DNA of 64,000 nucleotides, from assembly GCA_948099385.1 (NCBI GenBank), contig CANUEZ040000159.1, positions 7,148,501 to 7,212,500 on the forward strand, read 5' to 3'. A program made the position numbers and the translations under genes. Origin of the DNA: Fasciola hepatica (Eukaryota > Platyhelminthes > Trematoda > Plagiorchiida > Fasciolidae). The first letter of the stretch is position 1, and every line of letters starts with the position of its first letter. Under the pieces are notes generated by a model. That model did not search any database. It was given only the letters and a program-made list of their open reading frames with translations, and was not told the origin of the DNA. This document shows positions 1-51,926 of the stretch, piece by piece.

Positions 1-271
1 CCATGCTTTTCAATGGTGAGTTGAGCGTTCAAGCTGCATGATGAATCATATCATATACAAATCTAATCTCCTTCAACTCAATTGCAAACAGTAACCAAGC
101 TGTGTAGGTTGTTCATAACGGAATGCCTTCGTTGTACTTAGGCCCCTACAGAGAAGTCATCCATCATAGAAGTGGATCGCTGTGTGGGAAGCGGGTTGTT
201 ACCGTTCAAAGCCAGTGACGGAAGGGTGCTATATCATGTAGTGTAGATATTCAACAAACCGTTGAGAGCCA

Positions 272-346
272 GCCCGGGTAGCCTTGTGGTTAAGGTGTTC
301 GATTCACAATCGTTCACCCAGGGTTCGAGTCCCCGTGGGTGCTCCA
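272..346 (+). other. tRNA-like module with CAC anticodon position and CCA-like end (reference copy)
   Basis: A 75-nt tRNA-shaped sequence. The segment at 272-278 would be the 5' acceptor strand, T279 is position 8, and the D stem pairs 281-284 with 293-296. The anticodon loop TTCACAA (303-309) carries T33 and CAC, the valine anticodon. The T arm spans 319-335 with a TTCGAGT loop, and TCCA follows at 343-346. Pairing is imperfect. The acceptor stem has several mismatches, only three pairs support the anticodon loop (300-302 with 310-312), and the T stem has one mismatch, repaired in the two 401-bp units near 2735 and 6743. It is therefore read as a tRNA-derived Pol III promoter head, as in SINEs, and not as a working tRNA. 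Its CCA overlaps the first two ribozyme bases. One copy occurs per unit at about -88 to -14 from the hammerhead C. Confidence 0.75.
279..332 (+). promoter_or_regulatory. Internal Pol III promoter, A and B boxes (reference copy)
   Basis: The A box is at 279-289 (TAGCCTTGTGG against the TRGYNNARNNGG-like consensus) and the B box at 322-332 (GGTTCGAGTCC, a perfect match to GGTTCRANTCC). They are about 32 bp apart, a tRNA-like spacing. Transcription would start roughly 10-15 bases before the A box, run rightwards through the hammerhead and meet T4 just past it. The B box is intact in most units. It is changed in the 405-bp units and in the units ending near 29185, 33187, 33987 and 35589. Promoter activity is inferred from the motifs alone. 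Confidence 0.65.
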
Positions 347-405
347 TGGATGTGCACTGCTGATGATTCCCAACAAGGATGAAACAGCTGTACAGTGCTT
401 CCATG
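345..405 (+). ncRNA. Type I hammerhead ribozyme (reference copy, present in every unit)
   Basis: All core parts of a hammerhead are present in order. The box CTGATGA is at 360-366, a stem II hairpin at 367-380 (TCC 368-370 with GGA 377-379, loop CAACAA 371-376), and GAAA at 381-384. Stem III is three pairs (384-386 with 389-391), followed by the GTA cleavage triplet 390-392. Stem I is open, which makes this type I. It pairs 345-350 with 400-405 and 354-359 with 393-398, separated by an internal loop (TGT 351-353 opposite T399) placed as in natural hammerheads, where it contacts loop II. The predicted cut is between A392 and C393. Two oddities are a U-U opposition at 367/380, where G-C is usual, and the minimal stem III. 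The fold is read by eye; activity is inferred. Near-identical copies follow in all units. Confidence 0.9.
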
Positions 406-407
406 CA

Positions 408-411
408 TTTT
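408..411 (+). terminator. Oligo-T (T4) Pol III terminator candidate after the hammerhead
   Basis: A TTTT run lies a few bases past the 3' end of the ribozyme here, and at +47 to +50 from the hammerhead C in most other units (for example 812-815). T4 is the minimal Pol III stop signal in animals. It would give a compact transcript of roughly 140-150 nt made of tRNA-like head plus ribozyme. About ten units carry CTTTGCAG and have only T3. Function is inferred. Confidence 0.5.
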
Positions 412-749
412 GATGGTGAGTTGAGCGTTCAAGCTGCATGATGAATCATATCATATACAAATCTAATCTCCTACAACTCAATTGCAAACAGTAACCAAGC
501 TGTGTAGGTTGTTCACAACGGAATGCCTTTGTTGTACTTAGGCCCCTACAGAGAAGTCATTCATCATAGGAGTGGATCGCTGTGTGGGAAGCGGGTTGTT
601 ACCGTTCGAGCCCAGTGACGGAAGGGTGCTATATCATGTAGTGTAGATGTTCAACAAACCGTTGAGAGCCAGCCCGGATAGCCTTGTGGTTAAGGTGTTC
701 GATTCTTAACCGTTCAATCAAAACCTTCTTCGAATCCCCGTGGGTGCTC

Positions 750-810
750 CATGGATGTGCACTGCTGATGATTCCCAACAAGGATGAAACAGCTGTACAG
801 TGCTTCCATG
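750..810 (+). ncRNA. Hammerhead ribozyme in a 405-bp variant unit
   Basis: Same hammerhead as the reference copy, with CTGATGA starting at 765 and the predicted cut between 797 and 798. The upstream tRNA-like module of this unit is altered. The anticodon stem and variable region read GATTCTTAACCGTTC and then an AATCAAAACC-like insertion, adding 5 bp, and the B box core changes to CTTCGAATCC. The same variant occurs in the units whose hammerhead C is at 1570, 2375 and 23985, with a hybrid at 4381. The ribozyme is unchanged although its promoter head has drifted. Confidence 0.85.
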
Positions 811-2950
811 CTTTTCAATGGTGAGTTGAGCGTTCAAGCTGCATGATGAATCATATCATATACAAATCTAATCTCCTACAACTCAATTGCAAACAGTAAC
901 CAAGCTGTGTAGGTTGTTCATAACGGAATGCCTTCGTTGTACTTAGGCCCCTACAGAGAAGTCATCCATCATAGGAGTGGATCGCTGTGTGGGAAGCGGG
1001 TTGTTACCGTTCAAAGCCAGTGACGGAAGGGTGCTATATCATGTAGTGTAGATGTTCAACAAACCGTTGAGAGCCAGCCCGGATAGCCTTGTGGTTAAGG
1101 TGTTCGATTCACAATCGTTCACCCAGGGTTCGAGTCCCCGTGGGGGCTCCATGGATGTGCACTGCTGATGATTCCCAACAAGGATGAAACAGCTGTACAG
1201 TGCTTCCATGCTTTTCAATGGTGAGTTGAGCGTTCAAGCTGCATGATGAATCATATCATATACAAATCTAATCTCCTACAACTCAATTGCAAACAGTAAC
1301 CAAGCTGTGTAGGTTGTTCACAACGGAATGCCTTTGTTGTACTTAGGCCCCTACAGAGAAGTCATTCATCATAGGAGTGGATCGCTGTGTGGGAAGCGGG
1401 TTGTTACCGTTCGAAGCCAGTGACGGAAGGGTGCTATATCATGTAGTGTAGATGTTCAACAAACCGTTGAGAGCCAGCCCGGATAGCCTTGTGGTTAAGG
1501 TGTTCGATTCTTAACCGTTCAATCAAAACCTTCTTCGAATCCCCGTGGGTGCTCCATGGATGTGCACTGCTGATGATTCCCAACAAGGATGAAACAGCTG
1601 TACAGTGCTTCCATGCTTTTCAATGGTGAGTTGAGCGTTCAAGCTGCATGATGAATCATATCATATACAAATCTAATCTCCTACAACTCAATTGCAAACA
1701 GTAACCAAGCTGTGTAGGTTGTTCATAACGGAATGCCTTCGTTGTACTTAGGCCCCTACAGAGAAGTCATCCATCATAGGAGTGGATCGCTGTGTGGGAA
1801 GCGGGTTGTTACCGTTCAAAGCCAGTGACGGAAGGGTGCTATATCATGTAGTGTAGATGTTCAACAAACCGTTGAGAGCCAGCCCGGATAGCCTTGTGGT
1901 TAAGGTGTTCGATTCACAATCGTTCACCCAGGGTTCGAGTCCCCGTGGGGGCTCCATGGATGTGCACTGCTGATGATTCCCAACAAGGATGAAACAGCTG
2001 TACAGTGCTTCCATGCTTTTCAATGGTGAGTTGAGCGTTCAAGCTGCATGATGAATCATATCATATACAAATCTAATCTCCTACAACTCAATTGCAAACA
2101 GTAACCAAGCTGTGTAGGTTGTTCACAACGGAATGCCTTTGTTGTACTTAGGCCCCTACAGAGAAGTCATTCATCATAGGAGTGGATCGCTGTGTGGGAA
2201 GCGGGTTGTTACCGTTCGAAGCCAGTGACGGAAGGGTGCTATATCATGTAGTGTAGATGTTCAACAAACCGTTGAGAGCCAGCCCGGATAGCCTTGTGGT
2301 TAAGGTGTTCGATTCTTAACCGTTCAATCAAAACCTTCTTCGAATCCCCGTGGGTGCTCCATGGATGTGCACTGCTGATGATTCCCAACAAGGATGAAAC
2401 AGCTGTACAGTGCTTCCATGCTTTTCAATGGTGAGTTGAGCGTTCAAGCTGCATGATGAATCATATCATATACAAATCTAATCTCCTACAACTCAATTGC
2501 AAACAGTAACCAAGCTGTGTAGGTTGTTCATAACGGAATGCCTTCGTTGTACTTAGGCCCCTACAGAGAAGTCATCCATCATAGGAGTGGATCGCTGTGT
2601 GGGAAGCGGGTTGTTACCGTTCAAAGCCAGTGACGGAAGGGTGCTATATCATGTAGTGTAGATGTTCAACAAACCGTTGAGAGCCAGCCCGGATAGCCTT
2701 GTGGTTAAGGTGTTCGATTCACAATCGTTCACCCCGGGGTTCGAGTCCCCGTGGGTGCTCCATGGATGTGCACTGCTGATGATTCCCAACAAGGATGAAA
2801 CAGCTGTACAGTGCTTCCATGCTTTTCAATGGTGAGTTGATCGTTCAAGCTGCATGATGAATCATATCATATACAAATCTAATCTCCTACAACTCAATTG
2901 CAAACAGTAACCAAGCTGTGTAGGTTGTTCATAACGGAATGCCTTCGTTG

Positions 2951-2984
2951 TACCCGGGCTATTAAGGAGAATTGGCCCATCAAA
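2951..2984 (+). repeat. Alternative sequence block (type b) inside a unit
   Basis: After GCCTTCGTTGTA most units read CTTAGGCCCCTACAGAGAAG and so on (type a). Here a same-length block reads CCCGGGCTATTAAGGAGAAT followed by TGGCCCATC. Type b recurs near 4153, 4957, 6557 and 16957. A third block, type c (TTTAGGCCATTAAGCAGAAT), occurs near 7756, 8156, 9355, 10960, 12160, 12557, 13358, 13760, 14155, 14957, 16157, 32969, 33762 and 35365. The sequences on either side of the block are otherwise the same in all types. Confidence 0.8.
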
Positions 2985-5900
2985 GGAGTGGATCGCTGTG
3001 TGGGAAACGGGTTGTTACCGTTCAAAGCCAGTGACGGAAGGGTGCTATATCATGTAGTGTAGATGTTCAACAAACCGTTGAGAGCCAGCCCGGATAGCCT
3101 TGTGGTTAAAGTGTTCGATTCACAATCGTTCACCCCGGGTGCGAGTCCTTGTGCGGGCTCCATGGATGTGCACTGCTGATGATTCCCAACAAGGATGAAA
3201 CAGCTGTACAGTGCTTCCATGCTTTTCAATGGTGAGTTGAGCGTTCAAGCTGCATGATGAATCATATCATATACAAATCTAATCTCCTACAACTCAATTG
3301 CAAACAGTAACCAAGCTGTGTAGGTTGTTCATAACGGAATGCCTTCGTTGTACTTAGGCCCCTACAGAGAAGTCATCCATCATAGGAGTGGATCGCTGTG
3401 TGGGAAGCGGGTTGTTACCGTTCAAAGCCAGTGACGGAAGGGTGCTATATCATGTAGTGTAGATGTTCAACAAACCGTTGAGAGCTAGCCCGGATAGCCT
3501 TGTGGTTAAGGTGCTCGATTCACAATCGTTCACCCCGGGTTCGAGTCCCCGTGGGTGCTCCATGGATGTGCACTGCTGATGATTCCCAACAAGGATGAAA
3601 CAGCTGTACAGTGCTTCCATGCTTTTCAATGGTGAGTTGAGCGTTCAAGCTGCATGATGAATCATATCATATACAAATCTAATCTCCTACAACTCAATTG
3701 CAAACAGTAACCAAGCTGTGTAGGTTGTTCATAACGGAATGCCTTCGTTGTACTTAGGCCCCTACAGAGAAGTCATCCATCATAGGAGTGGATCGCTGTG
3801 TGGGAAGCGGGTTGTTACCGTTCAAAGCCAGTGACGGAAGGGTGCTATATCATGTAGTGTAGATATTCAACAAACCATTGAAAGCCAGCCCGGGTAGCCT
3901 TGTGGTTAAGGTGTTCGATTCACAATCGTTCACCCCGGGTTCGAGTCCCCGTGGGTGCTCCATGGATGTGCACTGCTGATGATTCCCAACAAGGATGAAA
4001 CAGCTGTACAGTGCGTCCATGCTTTTCAATGGTGAGTTGAGCGTTCAAGCTGCATGATGAATCATATCATACACAAATCTAATCTCCTACAACTCAATTG
4101 CAAACAGTAACCAAGCTGTGTAGGTTGTTCATAACGGAATGCCTTCGTTGTACCTGGGCTATTAAGGAGAATTGGCCCATCATAGGAGTGGATCGCTGTG
4201 TGGGAAACGGGTTGTTACCGTTCAAAGCCAGTGACGGAAGGGTGCTATATCATGTAGTGTAGATGTTCAACAAACCGTTGAGAGCCAGCCCGGATAGCCT
4301 TGTGGTTAAGGTGTTCGATTCACAATCGTTCAATCAAACCCTTCTTCGAATCCCCGTGGGTGCTCCATGGGTGTGCACTGCTGATGATTCCCAACAAGGA
4401 TGAAACAGCTGTACAGTGCTTCCATGCTTTTCAATGGTGAGTTGAGCGTTCAAGCTGCATGATGAATCATATCATATACAAATCTAATCTCCTACAACTC
4501 AATTGCAAACAGTAACCAAGCTGTGTAGGTTGTTCATAACGGAATGCCTTCGTTGTACTTAGGCCCCTACAGAGAAGTCATTCATCATAGGAGTGGATCG
4601 CTGTGTGGGAAGCGGGTTGTTACCATTCAAAGCCAGTGACGGTAGGGTGCTATATCATGTAGTGTAGATGTTCAACAAACCGTTGAGAGCCAGCCCGGAT
4701 AGCCTTGTGGTTAAGGTGTTCGATTCACATGTGTTCACCCCGGGTTCGAGTCCCCGTGGGGGCTCCATGGATGTGCACTGCTGATGATTCCCAACAAGGA
4801 TGAAACAGCTGTACAGTGCTTCCATGCTTTTCAATGGTGAGTTGATCGTTCAAGCTGCATGATGAATCATATCATATACAAATCTAATCTCCTACAACTC
4901 AATTGCAAACAGTAACCAAGCTGTGTAGGTTGTTCATAACGGAATGCCTTCGTTGTACCCGGGCTATTAAGGAGAATTGGCCCATCATAGGAGTGGATCG
5001 CTGTGTGGGAAGCGGGTTGTTACCGTTCGAGCCCAGTGACGGAAGGGTGCTATATCATGTAGTGTAGATGTTCAACAAACCGTTGAGAGCCAGCCCGGAT
5101 AGCCTTGTGGTTAAGGTGTTCGATTCACAATCGTTCACCCCGGGTGCGAGTCCTTGTGCGGGCTCCATGGATGTGCACTGCTGATGATTCCCAACAAGGA
5201 TGAAACAGCTGTACAGTGCTTCCATGCATTTTGATGGTGAGTTGAGCGTTCAAGCTGCATGATGAATCATATCATATACAAATCTAATCTCCTACAACTC
5301 AATTGCAAACAGTAACCAAGCTGTGTAGGTTGTTCATAACGGAATGCCTTCGTTGTACTTAGGCCCCTACAGAGAAGTCATCCATCATAGGAGTGGATCG
5401 CTGTGTGGGAAGCGGGTTGTTACCGTTCAAAGCCAGTGACGGAAGGGTGCTATATCATGTAGTGTAGATGTTCAACAAACCGTTGAGAGCCAGCCCGGAT
5501 AGCCTTGTGGTTAAGGTGTTCGATTCACAATCGTTCACCCAGGGTTCGAGTCCCCGTGAGTGCTCCATGGATGTGCACTGCTGATGATTCCCAACAAGGA
5601 TGAAACAGCTGTACAGTGCTTCCATGCTTTTCAATGGTGAGTTGAGCGTTCAAGCTGCATGATGAATCATATCATATACAAATCTAATCTCCTACAACTC
5701 AATTGCAAACAGTAACCAAGCTGTGTAGGTTGTTCATAACGGAATGCCTTCGTTGTACTTAGGCCCCTACAGAGAAGTCATCCATCATAGGAGTGGATCG
5801 CTGTGTGGGAAGCGGGTTGTTACCGTTCAAAGCCAGTGACGGAAGGGTGCTATATCATGTAGTGTAGATATTCAACAAACCATTGAAAGCCAGCCCGGGT

Positions 5901-8900
5901 AGCCTTGTGGTTAAGGTGTTCGATTCACAATCGTTCACCCCGGGTTCGAGTCCCCGTGGGTGCTCCATGGATGTGCACTGCTGATGATTCCCAACAAGGA
6001 TGAAACAGCTGTACAGTGCTTCCATGCTTTTCAATGGTGAGTTGAGCGTTCAAGCTGCATGATGAATCATATCATATACAAATCTAATCTCCTACAACTC
6101 AATTGCAAACAGTAACCAAGCTGTGTAGGTTGTTCATAACGGAATGCCTTCGTTGTACTTAGGCCCCTACAGAGAAGTCATCCATCATAGGAGTGGATCG
6201 CTGTGTGGGAAGCGGGTTGTTACCGTTCAAAGCCAGTGACGGAAGGGTGCTATATCATGTAGTGTAGATATTCAACAAACCATTGAAAGCCAGCCCGGAT
6301 AGCCTTGTGGTTAAGGTGTTCGATTCACAATCGTTCACCCCGGGTTCGAGTCCCCGTGGGTGTTCCATGGATGTGCACTGCTGATGATTCCCAACAAGGA
6401 TGAAACAGCTGTACAGTGCTTCCATGCTTTTCAATGGTGAGTTGAGCGTTCAAGCTGCATGATGAATCATATCATATACAAATCTAATCTCCTACAACTC
6501 AATTGCAAACAGTAACCAAGCTGTGTAGGTTGTTCATAACGGAATGCCTTCGTTGTACCCGGGCTATTAAGGAGAATTGGCCCATCATAGGAGTGGATCG
6601 CTGTGTGGGAAACGGGTTGTTACCGTTCAAAGCCAGTGACGGAAGGGTGCTATATCATGTAGTGTAGATGTTCAACAAACCATTGAGAGCCAGCCCGGAT
6701 AGCCTTGTGGTTAAGGTGTTCGATTCACAATCGTTCACCCCGGGGTTCGAGTCCCCGTGGGTGCTCCATGGATGTGCACTGCTGATGATTCCCAACAAGA
6801 ATGAAACAGCTGTACAGTGCTTCCATGCTTTTCAATGGTGAGTTGAGCGTTCAAGCTGCATGATGAATCATATCATATACAAATCTAATCTCCTACAACT
6901 CAATTGCAAACAGTAACCAAGCTGTGTAGGTTGTTCATAACGGAATGCCTTCGTTGTACTTAGGCCCCTACAGAGAAGTCATCCATGATAGGAGTGGATC
7001 GCTGTGTGGGAAGCGGGTTGTTACCGTTCAAAGCCAGTGACGGAAGGGTGCTATATCATGTAGTGTAGATGTTCAACAAACCGTTGAGAGCCAGCCCGGA
7101 TAGCCTTGTGGTTAAGGTGTTCGATTCACAATCGTTCACCCCGGGTTCGAGTCCCAGTGGGGGCTCCATGGATGTGCACTGCTGATGATTCCCAACAAGG
7201 ATGAAACAGCTGTACAGTGCTTCCATGCTTTTCAATGGTGAGTTGAGCGTTCAAGCTGCATGATGAATCATATCATATACAAATCTAATCTCCTACAACT
7301 CAATTGCAAACAGTAACCAAGCTGTGTAGGTTGTTCATAACGGAATGCCTTCGTTGTACTTAGGCCCCTACAGAGAAGTCATTCATCATAGGAGTGGATC
7401 GCTGTGTGGGAAGCGGGTTGTTACCGTTCAAAGCCAGTGACGGGAGGGTGCTATATCATGTAGTGTTGATATTCAACAATCCACTGAATGCCAGCCCGGG
7501 TAGCCTTGTGGTTAAGGTGTTTGATTCACAATCGTTCACCCAGGGTTCGAGTCCCCGTGGGTGCTCCATGGATGTGCACTGCTGATGATTCCCAACAAGG
7601 ATGAAACAGCTGTACAGTGCTTCCATGCTTTTCAATGGTGAGTTGATCGTTCAAGCTGCATGATGAATCATATCATATACAAATCTAATCTCCTACAACT
7701 CAATTGCAAACAGTAACCAAGCTGTGTAGGTTGTTCATAACGGAATGCCTTCGTTGAATTTAGGCCATTAAGCAGAATTGGCCCATCATAGAATTGGATC
7801 GCTGTGTGGGAAACGGGTTGTTACCGTTCAAAGCCAGTGACGGAAGGGTGCTATATCATGTAGTGTAGATGTTCAACAAACCGTTGAGAGCCAGCCCGGA
7901 TAGCCTTGTGGTTAAGGTGTTCGATTCACAATCGTTCACCCCGGGTTCGAGTCCCCGTGGGTGCTCCATGGATGTGCACTGCTGATGATTCCCAACAAGG
8001 ATGAAACAGCTGTACAGTGCTTCCATGCTTTTCAATGGTGAGTTGAGCGTTCAAGCTGCATGATGAATCATATCATATACAAATCTAATCTCCTACAACT
8101 CAATTGCAAACAGTAACCAAGCTGTGTAGGTTGTTCATAACGGAATGCCTTCGTTGAATTTAGGCCATTAAGCAGAATTGGCCCATCATAGAATTGGATC
8201 GCTGTGTGGGAAGCGGGTTGTTACCGTTCAAAGCCAGTGACGGAAGGGTGCTATATCATGTAGTGTAGATGTTCAACAAACCGTTGAGAGCCAGCCCGGA
8301 TAGCCTTGTGGTTAAGGTGTTCGATTCACAATCGTTCACCCCGGGTTCGAGTCCCAGTGGGGGCTCCATGGATGTGCACTGCTGATGATTCCCAACAAGG
8401 ATGAAACAGCTGTACAGTGCTTCCATGCTTTTCAATGGTGAGTTGAGCGTTCAAGCCGCATGATGAATCATATCATACACAAATCTAATCTCTTACAACT
8501 CAATTGCAAACAGTAACCAAGCTGTGTAGGTTGTTCATAACGGAATGCCTTCGTTGTACTTAGGCCCCTACAGAGAAGTCATCCATCATAGGAGTGGATC
8601 GCTGTGTGGGAAGCGGGTTGTTACCGTTCGAAGCCAGTGACGGAAGGGTGCTATATCATGTAGTGTAGATGTTCAACAAACCGTTGAGAGCCAGCCCGGA
8701 TAGCCTTGTGGTTAAGGTGTTCGATTCACAATCGTTCACCCAGGGTTCGAGTCCCCGTGGGTGCTCCATGGATGTGCACTGCTGATGATTCCCAACAAGG
8801 ATGAAACAGCTGTACAGTGCTTCCATGCTTTTCAATGGTGAGTTGATCGTTCAAGCTGCATGATGAATCATATCATATACAAATCTAATCTCCTACAACT

Positions 8901-11580
8901 CAATTGCAAACAGTAACCAAGCTGTGTAGGTTGTTCATAACGGAATGCCTTCGTTGTACTTAGGCCCCTACAGAGAAGTCATCCATCATAGGAGTGGATC
9001 GCTGTGTGGGAAACGGGTTGTTACCGTTCAAAGCCAGTGACGGAAGGGTGCTATATCATGTAGTGTAGATATTCAACAAACCATTGAAAGCCAGCCCGGA
9101 TAGCCTTGTGGTTAAGGTGTTCGATTCACAATCGTTCACCCAGGGTTCGAGTCCCCGTGGGTGCTCCATGGATGTGCACTGCTGATGATTCCCAACAAGG
9201 ATGAAACAGCTGTACAGTGCTTCCATGCTTTTCAATGGTGAGTTGAGCGTTCAAGCTGCATGATGAATCATATCATATACAAATCTAATCTCCTACAACT
9301 CAATTGCAAACAGTAACCAAGCTGTGTAGGTTGTTCATAACGGAATGCCTTCGTTTATTTAGGCCATTAAGCAGAATTGGCCCATCATAGAAGTGGATCG
9401 CTGTGTGGGAAGCGGGTTGTTACCGTTCAAAGCCAGTGACGGAAGGGTGCTATATCATGTAGTGTAGATGTTCAACAAACCGTTGAGAGCCAGCCCGGAT
9501 AGCCTTGTGGTTAAGGTGTTCGATTCACAATCGTTCACCCCGGGTTCAAGTCCCAGTGAGGGCTCCATGGATGTGCACTGCTGATGATTCCCAACAAGGA
9601 TGAAACAGCTGTACAGTGCTTCCATGCTTTTCAATGGTGAGTTGATCGTTCAAGCTGCATGATGAATCATATCATATACAAATCTAATCTCCTACAACTC
9701 AATTGCAAACAGTAAACAAGCTGTGTAGGTTGTTCATAACGGAATGCCTTCGTTGTACTTAGGCCCCTACAGAGAAGTCATTCATCATAGGAGTGGATCG
9801 CTGTGTGGGAAGCGGGTTGTTACCGTTCAAAGCCAGTGACGGAAGGGTGCTATATCATGTAGTGTAGATGTTCAACAAACCGTTGAGAGCCAGCCCGGAT
9901 AGCCTTGTGGTTAAGGTGTTCGATTCACAATCGTTCACCCCGGGTTCGAGTCCCCGTGGGTGCTCCATGGATGTGCACTGCTGATGATTCCCAACAAGGA
10001 TGAAACAGCTGTACAGTGCTTCCATGCTTCTCAATGGTGAGTTGAGCGTTCAAGCTGCATGATGAATCATATCATACACAAATCTAATCTCCTACAACTC
10101 AATTGCAAACAGTAACCAAGCTGTGTAGGTTGTTCATAACGGAATGCCTTCGTTGTACTTAGGCCCCTACAGAGAAGTCATCCATCATAGGAGTGGATCG
10201 CTGTGTGGGAAGCGGGTTGTTACCGTTCAAAGCCAGTGACGGAAGGGTGCTATATCATGTAGTGTAGATGTTCAACAAACCGTTGAGAGCCAGCCCGGAT
10301 AGCCTTGTGGTTAAGGTGTTCGATTCACAATCGTTCACCCCGGGTTCGAGTCCCCGTGTGTGCTCCATGGATGTGCACTGCTGATGATTCCCAACAAGGA
10401 TGAAACAGCTGTACAATGCTTCCATGCTTTTCAATGGTGAGTTGAGCGTTCAAGCTGCATGATGAATCATATCATATACAAATCTAATCTCCTACAACTC
10501 AATTGCAAACAGTAACCAAGCTGTGTAGGTTGTTCATAACGGAATGCCTTCGTTGTACTTAGGCCCCTACAGAGAAGTCATTCATCATAGGAGTGGATCG
10601 CTGTGTGGGAAGCGGGTTGTTACCGTTCAAAGCCAGTGACGGAAGGGTGCTATATCATGTAGTGTAGATGTTCAACAAACCGTTGAGAGCCAGCCCGGAT
10701 AGCCTTGTGGTTAAGGTGTTCGATTCACAATCGTTCACCCCGGATTCGAGTCCCCGTGGGTGCTCCATGGATGTGCACTGCTGATGATTCCCAACAAGGA
10801 TGAAACAGCTGTACAGTGCTTCCATGCTTTTCAATGGTGAGTTGAGCGTTCAAGCTGCATGATGAATCATATCATATACAAATCTAATCTCCTACAACTC
10901 AATTGCAAACAGTAACCAAGCTGTGTAGGTTGTTCATAACGGAATGCCTTCGTTGTACTTAGGCCATTAAGCAGAATTGGCCCATCATAGAAGTGGATCG
11001 CTGTGTGGGAAGCGGGTTGTTACCGTTCAAAGCCAGTGACGGAAGGGTGCTATATCATGTAGTGTAGATGTTCAACAAACCGTTGAGAGCCAGCCCGGAT
11101 AGCCTTGTGGTTAAGGTGTTCGATTCACAATCGTTCACCCCGGGTTCAAGTCCCAGTGAGGGCTCCATGGATGTGCACTGCTGATGATTCCCAACAAGGA
11201 TGAAACAGCTGTACAGTGCTTCCATGCTTTGCAGTGGTGAGTTGATCGTTCAAGCTGCATGATGAATCATATCATATACAAATCTAATCTCCTACAACTC
11301 AATTGCAAACAGTAACCAAGCTGTGTAGGTTGTTCATAACGGAATGCCTTCGTTGTACTTAGGCCCCTACAGAGAAGTCATTCATCATAGGAGTGGATCG
11401 CCGTGTGGGAAACGGGTTGTTACCGTTCAAAGCCAGTGACGGAAGGGTGCTATATCATGTAGTGTAGATGTTGAACAAACCGTTGAGAGCCAGCCCGGAT
11501 AGCCTTGTGGTTAAGGTGTTCGATTCACAATCGTTCACCCCGGGTTCGAGTCCCCGTCGGGGCTCCATGGATGTGCACTG

Positions 11581-29500: not shown

Positions 29501-29585
29501 GGATAGCCTTGTGGTTAAGGTGTTCGATTCACAATCGTTCACCCCGGGTTCGAGTCCCCGTGGGTGCTCCATGGATGTGCACTGC

Positions 29586-31185: not shown

Positions 31186-31587
31186 TGATGATTTCCAACA
31201 AGGATGAAACAGCTGTACAGTGCTTCCATGCTTTTCAATGGTGAGTTGAGCGTTCAAGCTGCATGATGAATCATATCATATACAAATCTAATCTCCTACA
31301 ACTCAATTGCAAACAGTAACCAAGCTGTGTAGGTTGTTCATAACGGAATGCCTTCGTTGTACTTAGGCCCCTACAGAGAAGTCATCCATCATAGGAGTGG
31401 ATCGCTGTGTGGGAAGCGGGTTGTTACCGTTCAAAACCGGTGACGGAAGGGTGCTATATCATGTAGTGTAGATGTTCAACAAACCGTTGAGAGCCAGCCC
31501 GGATAGCCTTGTGGTTAAGGTGTTTGATTCACAATCCTTCACCCCGGGTTCGAGTCCCCGTGGGTGCTCCATGGATGTGCACTGCTG

Positions 31588-34500: not shown

Positions 34501-35589
34501 TACAACTCAATTGCAAACAGTAACCAAGCTGTGTAGGTTGTTCATAACGGAATGCCTTCGTTGTACTTAGGCCCCTACAGAGAAGTCATCCATCATAGGA
34601 GTGGATCGCTGTGTGGGAAGCGGGTTGTTACCGTTCAAAGCCAGTGACGGAAGGGTGCTATATCATGTAGTGTAGATGTTCAACAAACCGTTGAGAGCCA
34701 ACCCGGATAGCCTTGTGGTTAAGGTGTTCGATTCACAATCGTTCACCCCGGGTTCGAGTCCCCGTGTGTGCTCCATGGATGTGCACTGCTGATGATTCCC
34801 AACAAGGATGAAACAGCTGTACAGTGCTTCCATGCTTTTCAATGGTGAGTTGAGCGTTCAAGCTGCATGATGAATCATATCATATACAAATCTAATCTCC
34901 TACAACTCAATTGCAAACAGTAACCAAGCTGTGTAGGTTGTTCATAACGGAATGCCTTCGTTGTACTTAGGCCCCTACAGAGAAGTCATCCATCATAGGA
35001 GTGGATCGCTGTGTGGGAAGCGGGTTGTTACCGTTCAAAGCCAGTGACGGAAGGGTGCTATATCATGTAGTGTAGATGTTCAACAAACCGTTGAGAGCCA
35101 GCCCGGATAGCCTTGTGGTTAAGGTGTTCGATTCACAATCGTTCACCCCGGGTTCGAGTCCCCGTGGGTGCTCCATGGATGTGCACTGCTGATGATTCCC
35201 AACAAGGATGAAACAGCTGTACAGTGCTTCCATGCTTTTCAATGGTGAGTTGAGCGTTCAAGCTGCATGATGAATCATATCATATACAAATCTAATCTCC
35301 TACAACTCAATTGCAAACAGTAACCAAGCTGTGTAGGTTGTTCATAACGGAATGCCTTCGTTGTATTTAGGCCATTAAGCAGAATTGGCCCATCATAGGA
35401 GTGGATCGCTGTGTGGGAAGCGGGTTGTTACCGTTCAAAGCCAGTGACGGAAGGGTGCTATATCATGTAGTGTAGATGTTCAACAAACCGTTGAGAGCCA
35501 GCCCGGATAGCCTTGTGGTTAACGTGCTCGATTCACAATCGTTCACCCCGTGTTCGAATAACCGTGTGTGCTCCATGGATGTGCACTGC
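31588..35589 (+). repeat. Large segmental duplication inside the array, ~2.4-kb offset
   Basis: Four consecutive units (boxes 31987, 32387, 32787, 33187) match four others (34389, 34789, 35189, 35589) in order. The pairs share the GCACTCTG insertion with TGTTTGATTC, then AACCCGGATAGC with GTGTGTGCTCC, then the common form, then the TTTAGGCCATTAAGC-type block with TTAACGTGCTCG and GTTCGAATAACC. The offset is 2,402 bp, or six units. Confidence 0.65.
31972..32034 (+). ncRNA. Hammerhead copy with 2-nt insertion in stem I
   Basis: Here the strand before the box reads GCACTCTG instead of GCACTG, adding two bases to the 5' strand of stem I next to the catalytic core (box C at 31987). The same insertion occurs in the unit with box C at 34389, about 2.4 kb away. 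Stem I can still form with a bulge, but core geometry may suffer. The insertion accounts for the 402-bp length of these two units. Confidence 0.75.
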
Positions 35590-37589
35590 TGATGATTCCC
35601 AACAAGGATGAAACAGCTGTACAGTGCTTCCATGCTTTTCAATGGTGAGTTGAGCGTTCAAGCTGCATGATGAATCATATCATATACAAATCTAATCTCC
35701 TACAACTCAATTGCAAACAGTAACCAAGCTGTGTAGGTTGTTCATAACGGAATGCCTTCGTTGTACTTAGGCCCCTACAGAGAAGTCATCCATCATAGGA
35801 GTGGATCGCTGTGTGGGAAGCGGGTTGTTACCGTTCAAACCCGGTGACGGAAGGGTGCTATATCATGTAGTGTAGATGTTCAACAAACCGTTGAGAGCCA
35901 GCCCGGATAGCCTTGTGGTTAAGGTGTTCGATTCACAATCGTTCACCCCGGGTTCGAGTCCCCGTGTGTGCTCCATGGATGTGCACTGCTGATGATTTCC
36001 AACAAGGATGAAACAGCTGTACAGTGCTTCCATGCTTTTCAATGGTGAGTTGAGCGTTCAAGCTGCATGATGAATCATATCATATACAAATCTAATCTCC
36101 TACAACTCAATTGCAAACAGTAACCAAGCTGTGTAGGTTGTTCATAACGGAATGCCTTCGTTGTACTTAGGCCCCTACAGAGAAGTCATCCATCATAGGA
36201 GTGGATCGCTGTGTGGGAAGCGGATTGTTACCGTTCAAAGCCAGTGACGGAAGGGTGCTATATCATGTAGTGTAGATGTTCAACAAACCGTTGAGAGCCA
36301 GCCCGGATAGCCTTGTGGTTAAGGTGTTTGATTCACAATCGTTCACCCCGGGTTCGATTCCCCGTGGGTGCTCCATGGATGTGCACTGCTGATGATTCCC
36401 AACAAGGATGAAACAGCTGTACAGTGCTTCCATGCTTTGCAGTGGTGATTTGAGCGTTCAAGCTGCATGATGAATCATATCATATACAAATCTAATCTCC
36501 TACAACTCAATTGCAAACAGTAACCAAGCTGTGTAGGTTGTTCATAACGGAATGCCTTCGTTGTACTTAGGCCCCTACAGAGAAGTCATCCATCATAGGA
36601 GTGGATCGCTGTGTGGGAAGCGGGTTGTTACCGTTCAAAGCCAGTGACGGAAGGGTGCTATATCATGTAGTGTAGATGTTGAACAAACCGTTGAGAGCCA
36701 GCCCGGATAGCCTTGTGGTTAAGGTGTTCGATTCACAATCGTTCACCCAGGGTTCGAGTCCCCGTGTGTGCTCCATGGATGTGCACTGCTGATGATTCCC
36801 AACAAGGATGAAACAGCTGTACAGTGCTTCCATGCTTTTCAATGGTGAGTTGAGCGTTCAAGCTGCATGATGAATCATATCATATACAAATCTAATCTCC
36901 TACAACTCAATTGCAAACAGTAACCAAGCTGTGTAGGTTGTTCATAACGGAATGCCTTCGTTGTACTTAGGCCCCTACAGAGAAGTCATCCATCATAGGA
37001 GTGGATCGCTGTGTGGGAAGCGGGTTGTTACCGTTCAAAGCCAGTGACGGAAGGGTGCTATATCATGTAGTGTAGATGTTGAACAAACCGTTGAGAGCCA
37101 GCCCGGATAGCCTTGTGGTTAAGGTGTTCGATTCACAATCGTTCACCCCGGGTTCGAGTCCCCGTGTGTGCTCCATGGATGTGCACCGCTGATGATTCCC
37201 AACAAGGATGAAACAGCTGTACAGTGCTTCCATGCTTTTCAATGGTGAGTTGAGCGTTCAAGCTGCATGATGAATCATATCATATACAAATCTAATCTCC
37301 TACAACTCAATTGCAAACAGTAACCAAGCTGTGTAGGTTGTTCATAACGGAATGCCTTCGTTGTACTTAGGCCCCTACAGAGAAGTCATCCATCATAGGA
37401 GTGGATCGCTGTGTGGGAAGCGGGTTGTTACCGTTCAAAGCCAGTGACGGAAGGGTGCTATATCATGTAGTGTAGATGTTCAACAAACCGTTGAGAGCCA
37501 GCCCGGATAGCCTTGTGGTTAAGGTGTTCGATTCACAATCGTTCACCCCGGGTTCGAGTCCCCGTGTGTGCTCCATGGATGTGCACCGC

Positions 37590-39989
37590 TGATGATTCCC
37601 AACAAGGATGAAACAGCTGTACAGTGCTTCCATGCTTTTCAATGGTGAGTTGAGCGTTCAAGCTGCATGATGAATCATATCATATACAAATCTAATCTCC
37701 TACAACTCAAATGCAAACAGTAACCAAGCTGTGTAGGTTGTTCATAACGGAATGCCTTCGTTGTACTTAGGCCCCTACAGAGAAGTCATCCATCATTGGA
37801 GTGGATCGCTGTGTGGGAAGCGGAATGTTACCGTTCAAAGCCAGTGACGGAAGGGTGCTATATCATGTAGTGTAGATGTTCAACAAACCGTTGAGAGCCA
37901 GCCCGGATAGCCTTGTGGTTAAGGTGTTCGATTCACAATCGTTCACCCCGGGTTCGAGTCCCCGTGGGTGCTCCATGGATGTGCACTGCTGATGATTCCC
38001 AACAAGGATGAATCAGCTGTACAGTGCTTCCATGCTTTTCAATGGTGAGTTGAGCGTTCAAGCTGCATGATGAATCATATCATATACAAATCTAATCTCC
38101 TACAACTCAATTGCAAACAGTAACCAAGCTGTGTAGGTTGTTCATAACGGAATGCCTTCGTTGTACTTAGGCCCCTACAGAGAAGTCATCCATCATAGGA
38201 GTGGATCGCTGTGTGGGAAGCGGGTTGTTAACGTTCAAACCCGGTGACGGAAGGGTGCTATATCATGTAGTGTAGATGTTGAACAAACCGTTGAGAGCCA
38301 GCCCGGATAGCCTTGTGGTTAAGGTGTTCGATTCACAATCGTTCACCCCGGGTTCGAGTCCTCGTGGGGGCTCCATGGATGTGCACCGCTGATGATTCCC
38401 AACAAGGATGAAACAGCTGTACAGTGCTTCCATGCTTTTCAATGGTGAGTTGAGCGTTCAAGCTGCATGATGAATCATATCATATACAAATCTAATCTCC
38501 TACAACTCAATTGCAAACAGTAACCAAGCTGTGTAGGTTGTTCATAACGGAATGCCTTCGTTGTACTTAGGCCCCTACAGAGAAGTCATCCATCATAGGA
38601 GTGGATCGCTGTGTGGGAAGCGGGTTGTTACCGTTCAAACCCGGTGACGGAAGGGTGCTATATCATGTAGTGTAGATGTTCAACAAACCGTTGAGAGCCA
38701 GCCCGGATAGCCTTGTGGTTAACGTGCTCGATTCACAATCGTTCACCCAGGGTTCGAGTCTCCGTGGGTGCTCCATGGATGTGCACTGCTGATGATTCCC
38801 AACAAGGATGAAACAGCTGTACAGTGCTTCCATGCTTTTCAATGGTGAGTTGAGCGTTCAAGCTGCATGATGAATCATATCATATACAAATCTAATCTCC
38901 TACAACTCAAATGCAAACAGTAACCAATCTGTGTAGGTTGTTCATAACGGAATGCCTTCGTTGTACTTAGGCCCCTACAGAGGAGTCATCCATCATTGGA
39001 GTGGATCGCTGTGTGGGAAGCGGAATGTTACCGTTCAAAGCCAGTGACGGAAGGGTGCTATATCATGTAGTGTAGATGTTCAACAAACCGTTGAGAGCCA
39101 GCCCGGATAGCCTTGTGGTTAAGGTGTTCGATTCACAATCGTTCACCCCGGGTTCGAGTCCCCGTGGGTGCTCCATGGATGTGCACCGCTGATGATTCCC
39201 AACAAGGATGAATCAGCTGTACAGTGCTTCCATGCATTTTGATGGTGAGTTGAGCGTTCAAGCTGCATGATGAATCATATCATATACAAATCTAATCTCC
39301 TACAACTCAATTGCAAACAGTAACCAAGCTGTGTAGGTTGTTCATAACGGAATGCCTTCGTTGTACTTAGGCCCCTACAGAGAAGTCATCCATCATAGGA
39401 GTGGATCGCTGTGTGGGAAGCGGGTTGTTACCGTTCAAAGCCAGTGACGGAAGGGTGCTATATCATGTAGTGTAGATGTTCAACAAACCGTTGAGAGCCA
39501 GCCCGGATAGCCTTGTGGTTAAGGTGTTTGATTCACAATCGTTCACCCAGGGTTCGAGTCTCCGTGGGTGCTCCATGGATGTGCACTGCTGATGATTCCC
39601 AACAAGGATGAAACAGCTGTACAGTGCTTCCATGCTTTTCAATGGTGAGTTGAGCGTTCAAGCTGCATGATGAATCATATCATATACAAATCTAATCTCC
39701 TACAACTCAATTGCAAACAGTAACCAAGCTGTGTAGGTTGTTCATAACGGAATGCCTTCGTTGTACTTAGGCCCCTACAGAGAAGTCATCCATCATAGGA
39801 GTGGATCGCTGTGTGGGAAGCGGGTTGTTACCGTTCAAAGCCAGTGACGGAAGGGTGCTATATCATGTAGTGTAGATGTTCAACAAACCGTTGAGAGCCA
39901 GCCCGGATAGCCTTGTGGTTAAGGTGTTCGATTCACAATCGTTCACCCCGGGTTCGAGTCCCCGTGTGTGCTCCATGGATGTGCACTGC
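37590..39989 (+). repeat. Diverged three-unit higher-order repeat, 1.2-kb period
   Basis: The units with boxes at 37989 and 39189 share AACTCAAATGCAAAC, CATCATTGGAGTGG, GCGGAATGTTACC and the GAATC ribozyme change. The units between and after them are less alike, so only part of the duplicated block is still recognisable. Confidence 0.6.
37974..38034 (+). ncRNA. Hammerhead copy with altered GAAA box (GAAT)
   Basis: The CTGATGA box is intact at 37989, but the downstream box reads GAATC (38010-38014) instead of GAAAC. That replaces A15.1, which closes stem III against U16.1, so cleavage should be impaired. The same change recurs 1,200 bp later (39210-39214), and both units also share TGGAGTGG and GGAATGTTA differences, so they are copies of one variant. 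All other units inspected keep GAAA. Confidence 0.8.
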
Positions 39990-42900
39990 TGATGATTCCC
40001 AACAAGGATGAAACAGCTGTACAGTGCTTCCATGCTTTTCAATGGTGAGTTGAGCGTTCAAGCTGCATGATGAATCATATCATATACAAATCTAATCTCC
40101 TACAACTCAATTGCAAACAGTAACCAAGCTGTGTAGGTTGTTCATAACGGAATGCCTTCGTTGTACTTAGGCCCCTACAGAGAAGTCATCCATCATAGGA
40201 GTGGATCGCTGTGTGGGAAGCGGGTTGTTACCGTTCAAAGCCAGTGACGGAAGGGTGCTATATCATGTAGTGTAGATGTTCAACAAACCGTTGAGAGCCA
40301 GCCCGGATAGCCTTGTGGTTAAGGCGTTTGATTCACAATCGTTCACCCAGGGTTCGATTCCCCGTGGGGGCTCCATGGATGTGCACTGCTGATGATTCCC
40401 AACAAGGATGAAACAGCTGTACAGTGCTTCCGTGCTTTGCAGTGGTGAGTTGAGCGTTCAAGCTGCATGATGAATCATATCATATACAAATCTAATCTCC
40501 TACAACTCAATTGCAAACAGTAACCAAGCTGTGTAGGTTGTTCATAACGGAATGCCTTCGTTGTACTTAGGCCCCTACAGAGAAGTCATCCATCATAGGA
40601 GTGGATCGCTGTGTGGGAAGCGGGTTGTTACCGTTCAAAGCCAGTGACGGAAGGGTGCTATATCATGTAGTGTAGATGTTCAACAAACCGTTGAGAGCCA
40701 GCCCGGATAGCCTTGTGGTTAAGGTGTTCGATTCACAATCGTTCACCCAGGGTTCGAGTCCCCGTGTGTGCTCCATGGATGTGCACCGCTGATGATTCCC
40801 AACAAGGATGAAACAGTTGTACAGTGCTTCCATGCTTTTCAATGGTGAGTTGAGCGTTCAAGCTGCATGATGAATCATATCATATACAAATCTAATCTCC
40901 TACAACTCAATTGCAAACAGTAACCAAGCTGTGTAGGTTGTTCATAACGGAATGCCTTCGTTGTACTTAGGCCCCTACAGAGAAGTAATCCATCATAGGA
41001 GTGGATCGCTGTGTGGGAAGCGGGTTGTTACCGTTCAAAGCCAGTGACGGAAGGGTGCTATATCATGTAGTGTAGATGTTGAACAAATCGTTGCGAGCCA
41101 GCCCGGATAGCCTTGTGGTTAAGGTGTTCGATTCACAATCGTTCGCCCCGGGTTCGAGTCCCCGTGGGTGCTCCATGGATGTGCACTGCTGATGATTCCC
41201 AACAAGGATGAAACAGCTGTACAGTGCTTCCATGCTTTTCAATGGTGAGTTGAGCGTTCAAGCTGCATGATGAATCATATCATATACAAATCTAATCTCC
41301 TACAACTCAATTGCAAACAGTAACCAAGCTGTGTAGGTTGTTCATAACGGAATGCCTTCGTTGTACTTAGGCCCCTACAGAGAAGTCATCCATCATAGGA
41401 GTGGATCGCTGTGTGGGAAGCGGGTTGTTACCGTTCAAAGCCAGTGACGGAAGGGTGCTATATCATGTAGTGTAGATGTTCAACAAACCGTTGAGAGCCA
41501 GCCCGGATAGCCTTGTGGTTAAGGTGTTCGATTCACATTCGTTCACCCCGGGTTCGAGTCCCCGTGGAGGCTCCATGGATGTGCATTGCTGATGATTCCC
41601 AACACGGATGAAACAGCTGTACAGTGCTTCCATGCTTTTCAATGGTGAGTTGAGCGTTCAAGCTGCATGATGAATCATATCATATACAAATCTAATCTCC
41701 TACAACTCAATTGCAAACAGTAACCAAGCTGTGTAGGTTGTTCATAACGGAATGCCTTCGTTGTACTTAGGCCCCTACAGAGAAGTCATCCATCATAGGA
41801 GTGGATCGCTGTGTGGGAAGCGGGTTGTTACCGTTCAAAGCCAGTGACGGAAGGGTGCTATATCATGTAGTGTAGATGTTGAACAAACCGTTGAGAGCCA
41901 GCCCGGAAAGCCTTGTGGTTAAGGTGTTCGATTCACAATCGTTCACCCCGGGTTCGAGTCCCAGTGGGGGCTCGGTGGATGTGCACCGCTGATGATTCCC
42001 AACAAGGATGAAACAGCTGTACAGTGCTTCCATGCTTTTCAATGGTGAGTTGAGCGTTCAAGCTGCATGATGAATCATATCATATACAAATCTAATCTCC
42101 TACAACTCAATTGCAAACAGTAACCAAGCTGTGTAGGTTGTTCATAACGGAATGCCTTCGTTGTACTTAGGCCCCTACAGGGAAGTCATCCATCATAGGA
42201 GTGGATCGCTGTGTGGGAAGCGGGTTGTTACCGTTCAAACCCGGTGACGGAAGGGTGCTATATCATGTAGTGTAGATGTTCAACAAACCGTTGAGAGCCA
42301 GCCCGGATAGCCTTGTGGTTAAGGTGTTCGATTCACAATCGTTCACCCAGGGTTCGAGTCCCCGTGGGGGCTCCATGGATGTGCACTGCTGATGATTCCC
42401 AACAAGGATGAAACAGCTGTACAGTGCTTCCATGCTTTTCAATGGTGAGTTGATCGTTCAAACTGCATGATGAATCATATCATATACAAATCTAATCTCC
42501 TACAACTCAATTGCAAACAGTAACCAAGCTGTGAAGGTTGTTCATAACGGAATGCCTTCGTTGTACTTAGGCCCCTACAGAGAAGTCATCCATCATAGGA
42601 GTGGATCGCTGTGTGGGAAGCGGGTTGTTACCGTTCAAAGCCAGTGACGGAAGGGTGCTATATCATGTAGTGTAGATGTTCAACAAACCGTTGAGAGCCA
42701 GCCCGGATAGCCTTGTGGTTAAGGTGTTCGATTCACAATCGTTCACCCCGGGTTCGAGTCCCCGTGTGTGCTCCATGGATGTGCACTGCTGATGATTCCC
42801 AACAAGGATGAAACAGCTGTACAGTGCTTCCATGCTTTGCAGTGGTGATTTGAGCGTTCAAGCTGCATGATGAATCATATCATATACAAATCTAATCTCC

Positions 42901-43573
42901 TACAACTCAATTGCAAACAGTAACCAAGCTGTGTAGGTTGTTCATAACGGAATGCCTTCGTTGTACTTAGGCCCCTACAGAGAAGTCATCCATCATAGGA
43001 GTGGATCGCTGTGTGGGAAGCGGGTTGTTACCGTTCAAAGCCAGTGACGGAAGGGTGCTATATCATGTAGTGTAGATGTTGAACAAACCGTTGAGAGCCA
43101 GCCCGGAAAGCCTTGTGGTTAAGGTGTTCGATTCACAATCGTTCACCCCGGGTTCGAGTCCCCGTGGGGGCTCCATGGATGTGCACTGCTGATGATTCCC
43201 AACAAGGATGAAACAGCTGTACAGTGCTTCCATGCTTTTCAATGGTGAGTTGAGCGTTCAAGCTGCATGATGAATCATATCATATACAAATCTAATCTCC
43301 TACAACTCAATTGCAAACAGTAACCAAGCTGTGTAGGTTGTTCATAACGGAATGCCTTCGTTGTACTTAGGCCCCTACAGAGAAGTCATCCATCGTAGGA
43401 GTGGATCGCTGTGTGGGAAGCGGGTTGTTAACGTTCAAAGCCAGTGACGGAAGGGTGCTATATCATGTAGTGTAGATGTTCAACAAACCGTTGAGAGCCA
43501 GCCCGGATAGCCTTGTGGTTAAGGTGTTTGATTCACAATCGTTCACCCAGGGTTCGAGTCCCCGTGTGTGCTC

Positions 43574-43634
43574 GGTGGATGTGCACTGCTGATGATTCCC
43601 AACAAGGATGAAACAGCTGTACAGTGCTTCCATG
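43574..43634 (+). ncRNA. Last hammerhead ribozyme of the array
   Basis: The final complete ribozyme core, with CTGATGA at 43589-43595, GAAA at 43610-43613, and the predicted cut between 43621 and 43622. The distal stem I strand reads GGTGGA instead of CATGGA, as also seen near 20363, 21963, 23563 and 41973. This weakens outer stem I and removes the CCA of the tRNA-like module. The array stops about 50 bases further on. Confidence 0.85.
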
Positions 43635-43686
43635 CTTTTCAATGGTGAGTTGAGCGTTCAAGCTGCATGATGACTCGTATCATATA

Positions 43687-51689: not shown

Positions 51690-51926
51690 TTGATGAAAGA
51701 ATCTATCTTCTACATGGCACCCATTGCTTACCCCGACTCTTTCGCTCCTCCCGCAATAGGACCAGACACTTCGGACATGGCTGTTGGGGCAGCGTTGAAG
51801 CAATTAGTCGATAGCACTAGGCGAACAATAGCTTTCTTTCCCAACCGTTTGGAACCTTACGAATCCAAGCAGTGCACATTGAGCGGAGAAATACCTGCAT
51901 TTTGTTCGGGCATCCGACATTTCTGA
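51690..51926 (+). pseudogene. Gypsy RNase H fragment
   Basis: The frame reads DTSDMAVGAALKQLVDSTRR, equivalent to the VDASDxAVGAVLQQ start of gypsy RNase H, followed by IAFFPNRLEPYESKQCTLSGE (normally IAFFSRRLQPAETRYSTFGRE) and FCSGIRHF (normally YLAVKHFRHF). The catalytic DAS-type aspartate region and the E of the GE motif are recognisable. The frame stops at 51926, but homologous sequence carries on briefly to about 51,960 and then ends. Confidence 0.8.

What the first reader, a model, noticed from the sequence alone, without database searches (positions are those of the whole stretch)
1..43686. A 43-kb satellite in which every 400-bp unit encodes a tRNA-like Pol III module fused to a hammerhead ribozyme
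All ~109 units keep the CTGATGA box in the same place, and all but two of those inspected keep GAAA, while the rest of the unit varies. The pairing of stems I, II and III can be read directly. This is the architecture of the schistosome Sm-alpha satellite and of animal hammerhead satellites and retrozymes, whose transcripts become monomers and circles. The unit sequence and length may represent a new family. The array would make tens of near-identical self-cleaving RNAs per transcript.
Basis: partly seen in the sequence, partly recalled or inferred. Interest (0 to 1): 0.92.

Follow-up and report, generated by a model that had tools for sequence, protein, structure and literature searches.

The report
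Ribozyme satellite with dispersed retroposon relatives
A 240-kb stretch of tandem 400-bp repeats, each with a tRNA-like head and a self-cutting-RNA motif, is related to repeats scattered through the same genome, which often sit as head-to-head mirror pairs that hint they were copied from long or circular ribozyme RNA.

Summary
Window 1-43686 is a 400-bp tandem array with 109 hammerhead cores: CTGATGA in 109/109, GAAA in 107/109. A tRNA-like head precedes each hammerhead. The window cuts the array: the locus spans about 240 kb and flips orientation once, head-to-head.

Corrections: units are 96.8% identical, and the hammerhead is not exceptionally conserved. No unit reaches Rfam's hammerhead cut-off (best 29.3 bits), owing to a U·U at the base of stem II (410/415 units) and an off-consensus loop. 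Axolotl Amex2 shares that mismatch and cleaves best as a dimer (PMC7229834); the palindromic stem III here also favours dimers.

Beyond the finding: the unit has dispersed retroposon relatives. Of 21 loci fetched, 19 are related; 14 of 19 are head-to-head pairs; 27 of 29 uncut 3' ends lie at unit 41-106; target-site duplications of 12 and 14 nt flank two whole pairs. The arms overlap in 13/14 pairs, implying a multimeric or circular RNA template, or two RNAs.

Kind: known (schistosome hammerhead satellites, animal retrozymes); the insertion architecture may be new. Cleavage, Pol III transcription and circles are untested.

The parts
1..43686 (+). Part of the tandem array lying in the window: 400-bp units, 109 hammerhead cores; continues left of the window
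1077..1148 (+). tRNA-like head of one example unit (A-box-like 1084-1094, B-box 1127-1137)
   Evidence: Rfam tRNA 34.9 bits; ARAGORN tRNA-Val(cac) 1077-1151. In the window, TAGCCTTGTGG in 107/109 and strict GGTTCGANNCC in 85/109; strict B box in 256/415 of the plus-strand locus
1159..1203 (+). Type I hammerhead of the same unit: stem I 1159-1164/1198-1203, CTGATGA 1165-1171, stem II 1172-1185, GAAA 1186-1189, palindromic stem III 1189-1196, predicted cut 1197/1198
   Evidence: Rfam Hammerhead_1 28.8 bits, below gathering 34; positions
1212..1215 (+). TTTT shortly after the cut: possible weak Pol III terminator
   Evidence: 98/109 units in the window, 396/415 in the plus-strand locus; function untested
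1212..1252 (+). Arm of the long stem predicted for the monomer RNA (partner 1433-1473; unit 15-55 with 236-276)
   Evidence: circular monomer z -4.09 against 100 shuffles; 33 pairs, 0 both-sides changes, 68 broken cells
1433..1473 (+). Partner arm of 1212-1252
1284..1293 (+). Unit 87-96 (ends ...GCAAA): place where six dispersed copies end exactly; 27 of 29 uncut copies end at unit 41-106
   Evidence: window position computed from the unit start 1198
43583..43627 (+). Last hammerhead before the right edge of the array
   Evidence: Rfam Hammerhead_1 28.8 bits
43630..43686 (+). Right edge: homology to the unit ends at unit position 65
   Evidence: alignment

Best explanation
The array is a satellite expanded from one member of a dispersed, non-coding, tRNA-headed hammerhead retroposon family, i.e. 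it works like an animal non-LTR retrozyme or the schistosome Sm-alpha element. (1) RNA spanning one or more units is made, probably from the internal tRNA-like promoter (inferred). (2) Hammerheads cut it after ...CUGUA, mainly as double hammerheads joined through the 8-bp palindromic stem III, because one copy alone has a 2-bp stem III and a weak stem II (inferred, with precedent). (3) Monomers may be circularised by tRNA ligase (inferred from published retrozymes). (4) A LINE- or Penelope-type enzyme copies the RNA into a nicked target, the 3' end usually lying near unit 41-106 (insertion structure shown, enzyme inferred). In 14 of 19 sampled loci cDNA apparently started from both sides of the break and the two 5' ends were joined head-to-head; the arms overlap in 13 of 14, so the template was a multimer, a circle or two RNAs. 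(5) One locus expanded by exchange and conversion to about 240 kb and still carries one head-to-head flip (array structure shown, origin inferred).
For: Array, motif and head. Mosaic of variant haplotypes among units. Dimer preference in the energy model: favoured over two monomers in 109/109; double hammerhead is the minimum-energy fold of 52 of 108 neighbouring pairs. Precedent for the U-U stem II base: axolotl HHR_Amex2, active mainly as dimer (PMC7229834 part 3). Dispersed hammerheads: 38 matches on 31 contigs, 37 over cut-off, 0 of 14 control genomes; 19 of 21 fetched loci related to the unit at 71-96% identity. Clustered 3' ends (27 of 29 at unit 41-106, six at 96) and spread 5' starts (33, unit 21-396). 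Direct repeats around whole inverted pairs: L095 14 nt, L094 12 nt; around a single copy: L086 10 nt; 3 of 15 loci with >=10 nt shared, random mean 0.0175, 0 of 400 random sets with 3. Array flip head-to-head at about C159:7026000.
Against: No array unit reaches Rfam's cut-off. 26 of 415 units have a broken core or cut site. In model transcripts starting at the head (1, 2 or 3 units) all cores are in the trapped fold. 12 of 15 loci tested show no duplication of >=10 nt, and L080/L081, two near-identical loci, share only 3 nt. No duplication flanks the 240-kb array (5 nt at best), and its left edge is at unit 218, outside the usual 3'-end range. The loci were picked for a hammerhead, so they are not a random sample and crossing the cut site was favoured.
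Confidence: 0.7

Rival explanations
1. Inert satellite: an ordinary homogenised satellite fixed a crippled hammerhead by drift; nothing in the array cleaves and the tRNA-like head is a relic.
For: U-U at the base of stem II in 410/415, never a standard pair; 0/109 over Rfam cut-off; hammerhead variation not exceptional among windows; strict B box only 256/415.
Against: HHR_Amex2 has the same mismatch and is active, best as dimer. 344 of 415 units keep core and all stem pairs tested. Palindrome ACAGCTGT kept in 392/415. Fewer variant cells in the hammerhead than average.
Confidence: 0.25
2. Short self-trimming Pol III RNA: transcription starts just before the tRNA-like head and stops at TTTT, giving a roughly 147-nt RNA whose own hammerhead removes its U-tailed 3' end; monomers and circles are not the product.
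For: TTTT 15-18 nt after the cut in 98/109 window units and 396/415 of the locus; head, hammerhead and TTTT lie within about 147 nt.
Against: The single hammerhead is trapped in that RNA in the energy model. Dispersed copies mostly extend past TTTT to unit 41-106, and 5' starts are spread widely, many upstream of the head at unit 280. T4 is a weak terminator (recalled).
Confidence: 0.2
3. The inverted pairs arose by DNA-level rearrangement or later insertion next to an older copy, not in one insertion event.
For: The array itself flips head-to-head. L080 and L081 are near-identical loci, so some pairs were copied by duplication. Only 2 of 10 pairs with both outer ends visible have a duplication of >=10 nt.
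Against: Breakpoints differ between loci and 9 of 14 junctions overlap by 1-5 nt. In L094 and L095 one duplication surrounds the whole pair. Outer ends of both arms fall in the 3'-end range in 9 of 10 pairs if unit 148 is allowed, 8 of 10 if not.
Confidence: 0.15

Closest known systems
Schistosoma mansoni hammerhead satellites: Sm-alpha/W36.2 and W25.2, W26.2, W27.2 (PMC8490949, sections 6 and 11 and passages; PMC2770079, passages)
   Same: Type I hammerhead in tandem satellite units; Sm-alpha elements score as a tRNA gene (tRNA-Gln-TTG there); W26.2 and W27.2 monomers of 399-403 bp in arrays of 41-161 kb; copies also dispersed on autosomes.
   Different: Sm-alpha monomers are 332-335 bp; the head here is called tRNA-Val by ARAGORN. 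The sequences themselves could not be compared (not held). Head-to-head pairs were not mentioned in what I read. Host here: 1.5 Gb, unit GC 47%.
Animal non-LTR retrozymes (PMC7229834, parts 1-3 of 6 and passages)
   Same: Non-coding tandem repeats of 150-450 bp, GC below 50%, type I hammerheads, target duplications longer than 4 bp, self-paired monomers; axolotl Amex2 has the U-U stem II base and acts as dimer.
   Different: No RNA or circles shown here. A tRNA-like head is not described in the parts read. Insertions here are often inverted pairs.
Dolichopoda pDo500 hammerhead satellite (PMC2837043, passages)
   Same: Hammerhead in each satellite unit; double-hammerhead form proposed.
   Different: Across 12 species its hammerhead is more conserved than the rest, with compensatory changes; within this array that signal is absent or weak.
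Twin priming of LINE insertions (recalled, no call)
   Same: Inverted arms joined at variable 5' ends within one target duplication.
   Different: In classical twin priming of one linear RNA the arms do not overlap (recalled); here they do in 13 of 14 pairs.

Membership tests
Type I hammerhead ribozyme (Rfam RF00163) | Core CUGANGA, GAAA and UH at the cut | tested here: met
   107/109 in the window; 389/415 in the plus-strand locus
Type I hammerhead ribozyme (Rfam RF00163) | Three helices around the core | tested here: inconclusive
   stem I six pairs in 93/109; stem II three pairs plus U-U at the base; stem III 2 bp per copy, 8 bp between copies
Type I hammerhead ribozyme (Rfam RF00163) | Score over the curated cut-off | tested here: not met
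   array 0/109; dispersed relatives do reach it, e.g. L083, L085-L090 and L078
Type I hammerhead ribozyme (Rfam RF00163) | Self-cleavage | not testable with these tools
   needs transcription in vitro
Animal non-LTR retrozyme | Tandem non-coding repeats of 150-450 bp with type I hammerhead, GC below 50% | tested here: met
   400 bp, GC 47.25%
Animal non-LTR retrozyme | Retroposition: target duplications longer than 4 bp | tested here: met
   dispersed relatives: 10, 12 and 14 nt in 3 of 15 loci; not found around the array itself
Animal non-LTR retrozyme | Linear and circular monomer RNA | not testable with these tools
   no RNA data
Schistosome Sm-alpha element | Sequence similarity to Sm-alpha | not tested
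   no Sm-alpha sequence held; Ferbeyre 1998 not held
Schistosome Sm-alpha element | Monomer of about 332-335 bp | tested here: not met
   400 bp; so not filed as Sm-alpha
tRNA-derived SINE | tRNA-like head with A and B boxes | tested here: met
   44/109 over tRNA cut-off; strict B box 85/109
tRNA-derived SINE | Full-length copies start at the Pol III start just before the head | tested here: inconclusive
   33 visible 5' starts spread over unit 21-396; head starts near unit 280; 5' truncation and unit-spanning copies such as L078 (410 nt) blur it

The most novel reading that the evidence does not exclude
Hammerhead retroposon RNA enters the genome as concatemer or circle: cDNA starts from both sides of one target break, the two growing strands copy overlapping parts of a repeating template and are joined head-to-head, giving ready-made inverted pairs. 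One such pair then expanded outward into a 240-kb satellite that still carries the flip. These fossils would record in DNA that ribozyme multimers or circles are the transposition intermediate.
Probability: 0.4. Interest if true: 0.78.

Novelty: new variant of a known kind. Interest (0 to 1): 0.6.

Why it matters
Hammerhead satellites and retrozymes are known, but how their RNA returns to DNA is inferred rather than seen. Head-to-head insertions with overlapping arms inside one target duplication would be direct genomic evidence on the form of the template. The locus also offers some 600 natural hammerhead variants (estimate) with a weak stem II and a palindromic stem III for testing dimer-dependent cleavage, and ties a satellite to dispersed relatives in one assembly.

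Tried and rejected
(1) Conservation as proof of function: dropped after the window comparisons. The 'core 11' row used a set shifted by one base; one search uses the right one (7 of 11 core sites vary; 9.7% of random 11-site sets are as low). (2) A 185-bp element ending where the array ends (unit 65): the other edge is at unit 218, though unit 65 does lie inside the 41-106 range of dispersed 3' ends. (3) Duplication around the whole array: 5 nt at best. (4) Higher-order repeats: only local ones; mean distance at lags 1-30 is nearly flat. (5) The long stem of the monomer as a selected structure: 0 both-sides changes, 68 broken cells. (6) That the U-U alone keeps array units under the cut-off: L085 also has U-U but a CAAATA loop and scores 39.1 bits, L089 has G-U with the array's CAACAA loop and scores 36.0, the array unit 28.8, so loop and base both count. 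(7) Naming the host: a gypsy RT fragment found four unnamed proteins at 37-65% identity; another frame found none. (8) Exact hammerhead pattern in IMG/VR and GTDB contigs, and blastn of one unit against phages: none. (9) A genome search with the head-hammerhead module: 40 of 1919 candidates scored, all 40 inside the satellite locus, so it could not show dispersed copies. (10) Counting all dispersed copies by pattern: not completed.

Caveats on counts. The overlap of L078 printed as 0 because its 410-nt minus copy exceeds one unit; I count it as overlapping (131 nt). L080 and L081 overlap by only 14 and 19 nt and are near-identical loci; L082 does not overlap; arms of L085, L089, L092 and L096 are cut by the fetched stretch. 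'Single' for L086, L088, L091, L093 and L097 means no second arm within the 651-701 bases fetched. The random control for target duplications draws from the same loci.
Full report
OBSERVATION. Tandem Repeats Finder gives one array at 1-43686, period 400, 109.1 copies. I find 109 hammerhead cores; of the 108 units between them 97 are exactly 400 bp, the rest 399-405. CTGATGA is in 109/109 and GAAA in 107/109. The two halves of the array together give a hammerhead-clan match in 109/109 units at E<=1 and none over the gathering score (counted by hand). The tRNA model matches 89/109 at E<=1 and 44/109 over its cut-off. ARAGORN lists 26 tRNA-Val(cac), all in the array. In the right flank (43500-64000) Rfam shows no hammerhead or tRNA beyond the array's last unit.

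ANATOMY. From the alignment: stem I GCACUG/CAGUGC, with an outer CAUGGA/UCCAUG helix; CUGAUGA; stem II UUCC-CAACAA-GGAU, three pairs and U-U at the base; GAAA; then ACAGCUGU, which is self-complementary, so one copy forms two pairs around AGCU while two copies can form eight. The predicted cut is after ...CUGUA. 92 of 109 units keep core, GAAA, six stem I pairs and stem III; 344 of 415 plus-strand units keep core and all stem pairs tested. The basal stem II pair is absent in 415/415. The tRNA-like head is immediately upstream; GCTCCATGG at its end is kept in 102/109. TTTT follows the cut at 15-18 nt (98/109).

IS CONSERVATION SPECIAL? Not clearly. Units are 96.8% identical, 93 of 108 distinct. 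The 45-nt hammerhead has fewer variant cells than average (29 against 84.3 expected; 0.83% against 2.38%), which favours constraint. But 87 of 400 windows, or 64 of 400 with 414 units, are as invariant, alleles per site are similar (1.07 against 1.15), and singletons are more than expected (22 against 15.0). Eleven hammerhead pairs show one both-sides change and 16 broken cells in 108 units. Variant haplotypes are shuffled among units. Homogenisation explains this without selection on each unit. Cricket pDo500, compared across species, does show constraint (PMC2837043, passages).

FOLDING (models only). The single hammerhead region is trapped in an inactive fold in 109/109; the active fold lies 6.2 kcal/mol higher on average, and a two-molecule complex is favoured in 109/109. 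Across RNAs spanning two neighbouring units the minimum-energy fold is the double hammerhead in 52 of 108. In model transcripts of 1, 2 and 3 units starting at the head all cores are trapped. The circular monomer is more stable than shuffles (z -4.09, 62.5% paired).

EXTENT. The window is C159:7148501-7212500 of a 1.5-Gb, 656-contig assembly. I read C159:7020001-7148500 and probes to the left. Plus-strand units run from 7026002 to 7192186 (415 cores). Minus-strand units were seen in 7020001-7025983, in 18 probes between 6952601 and 7011200 and at the left edge (L047, unit 218 at about 6952114); the stretches between probes were not read. Seven further probes (6000001-6951200) hold none. The locus is thus about 240 kb, some 600 units (estimate), with one flip seen, head-to-head.

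DISPERSED RELATIVES. The hammerhead model over the genome lists 38 matches on 31 contigs, 37 over the cut-off; 74 of 288,504 candidates were scored, so this is a lower bound; 0 of 14 control genomes match. A pattern with a G-C stem II base finds five (reversed-pattern control 0). I fetched 21 loci: those five and 16 of the 38. 19 of 21 are related to the unit, 71-96% identical over 53-410 nt; L084 and L098 are not. Of 13 scanned with Rfam (L078-L090), nine hold a hammerhead over the cut-off; L080 and L081 give none at E<=0.5, L079 and L082 only sub-threshold ones. Stem II bases among relatives include G-C, G-U, A-U and U-U.

INSERTION STRUCTURE. In 14 of 19 loci two copies lie head-to-head, 5' ends together, 3' ends outward. 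Junctions overlap by 1-5 nt in 9 of 14, are 1-3 nt apart in 3 and 25 and 52 nt apart in 2. Of 29 uncut 3' ends 27 fall at unit 41-106, six at exactly 96; two lie at 148 and 321. The 33 visible 5' starts are spread over unit 21-396. Since loci were picked for a hammerhead, copies crossing the cut site were favoured, but nothing in that choice fixes the 3' end. Direct repeats surround whole inverted pairs in L095 (AAAATCACATTTGT at 253 and 594) and L094 (AAGTAGATAATT at 198 and 559), and a single copy in L086 (ATTTTACGGA at 225 and 502). L087 has 7 nt (5% of random draws reach it). Three of 15 loci tested share >=10 nt; random mean 0.0175, and 0 of 400 random sets reach 3. Twelve of 15 do not, perhaps from age or from where local alignments end. 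Arms overlap in element coordinates in 13 of 14 pairs (with the L078 row corrected). By classical twin priming one linear monomer would not give this (recalled), so the template was a multimer, a circle or two RNAs.

MECHANISM. Shown: array, motif, tRNA-like head, dispersed relatives, clustered 3' ends, duplications around two pairs and one single copy. Inferred: Pol III transcription, cleavage (best as dimer), circularisation by tRNA ligase as published, the enzyme, and growth of the array from one insertion. The best support for activity despite U-U is axolotl HHR_Amex2: the same mismatch, a two-pair helix III, 22% cleavage in an hour as monomer and much more as dimer (PMC7229834 part 3).

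KNOWN OR NEW. S. mansoni W satellites include 399-403-bp monomers in arrays of 41-161 kb; four families (W25.2, W26.2, W27.2, W36.2) hold hammerhead-like sequences; of five candidates tested, variants of W25.2 and W36.2, three cleaved and two predicted inactive did not (PMC8490949, sections 6 and 11). Sm-alpha elements score as tRNA-Gln (PMC2770079, passages). Retrozyme-like repeats in platyhelminths are mentioned in PMC7229834. So the array is of a known kind. Head-to-head retrozyme insertions were not described in what I read; none of my ten paper searches asked for inverted insertions, so I do not claim they are unpublished.

Noticed in passing
C159:7025984-7026002 (L009, about 5984-6002): Single head-to-head orientation switch of the satellite: minus-strand units to the left, plus-strand units to the right, with differing unit breakpoints (about 358 and 132).
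   Followed up: partly
window 1149-1151 and the same place in 102 of 109 units: The tRNA-like head is followed directly by CCA, which also lies in the outer part of stem I; possibly a trace of origin from a mature tRNA.
   Followed up: no
L084 (C238:657600-658300) and C63:12448950 (L098): Hammerheads over Rfam's cut-off (39.5 and 35.6 bits) with no similarity to the satellite unit at E<=1e-3: probably other hammerhead families in this genome.
   Followed up: no
window 51678-51923 (+) and 58797-59213 (+): Remnants of LTR retrotransposons in the right flank: RT_RNaseH_2 over its Pfam cut-off and a sub-threshold RVT_1 match; 8 of 10 frames tested had no Pfam match.
   Followed up: partly
L080 and L081 (C149 near 3270759 and 3396256): Two nearly identical inverted-pair loci about 125 kb apart, likely copies of one another by duplication.
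   Followed up: no
L082 2293-2397: A long near-perfect hairpin in the DNA gives sub-threshold microRNA-family matches on both strands; probably a fold-back element.
   Followed up: no
C99:1478685(-)/1479280(+) and C25:4971121(-)/4971600(+): Further hammerhead matches in head-to-head order within about 600 bases, not fetched.
   Followed up: no
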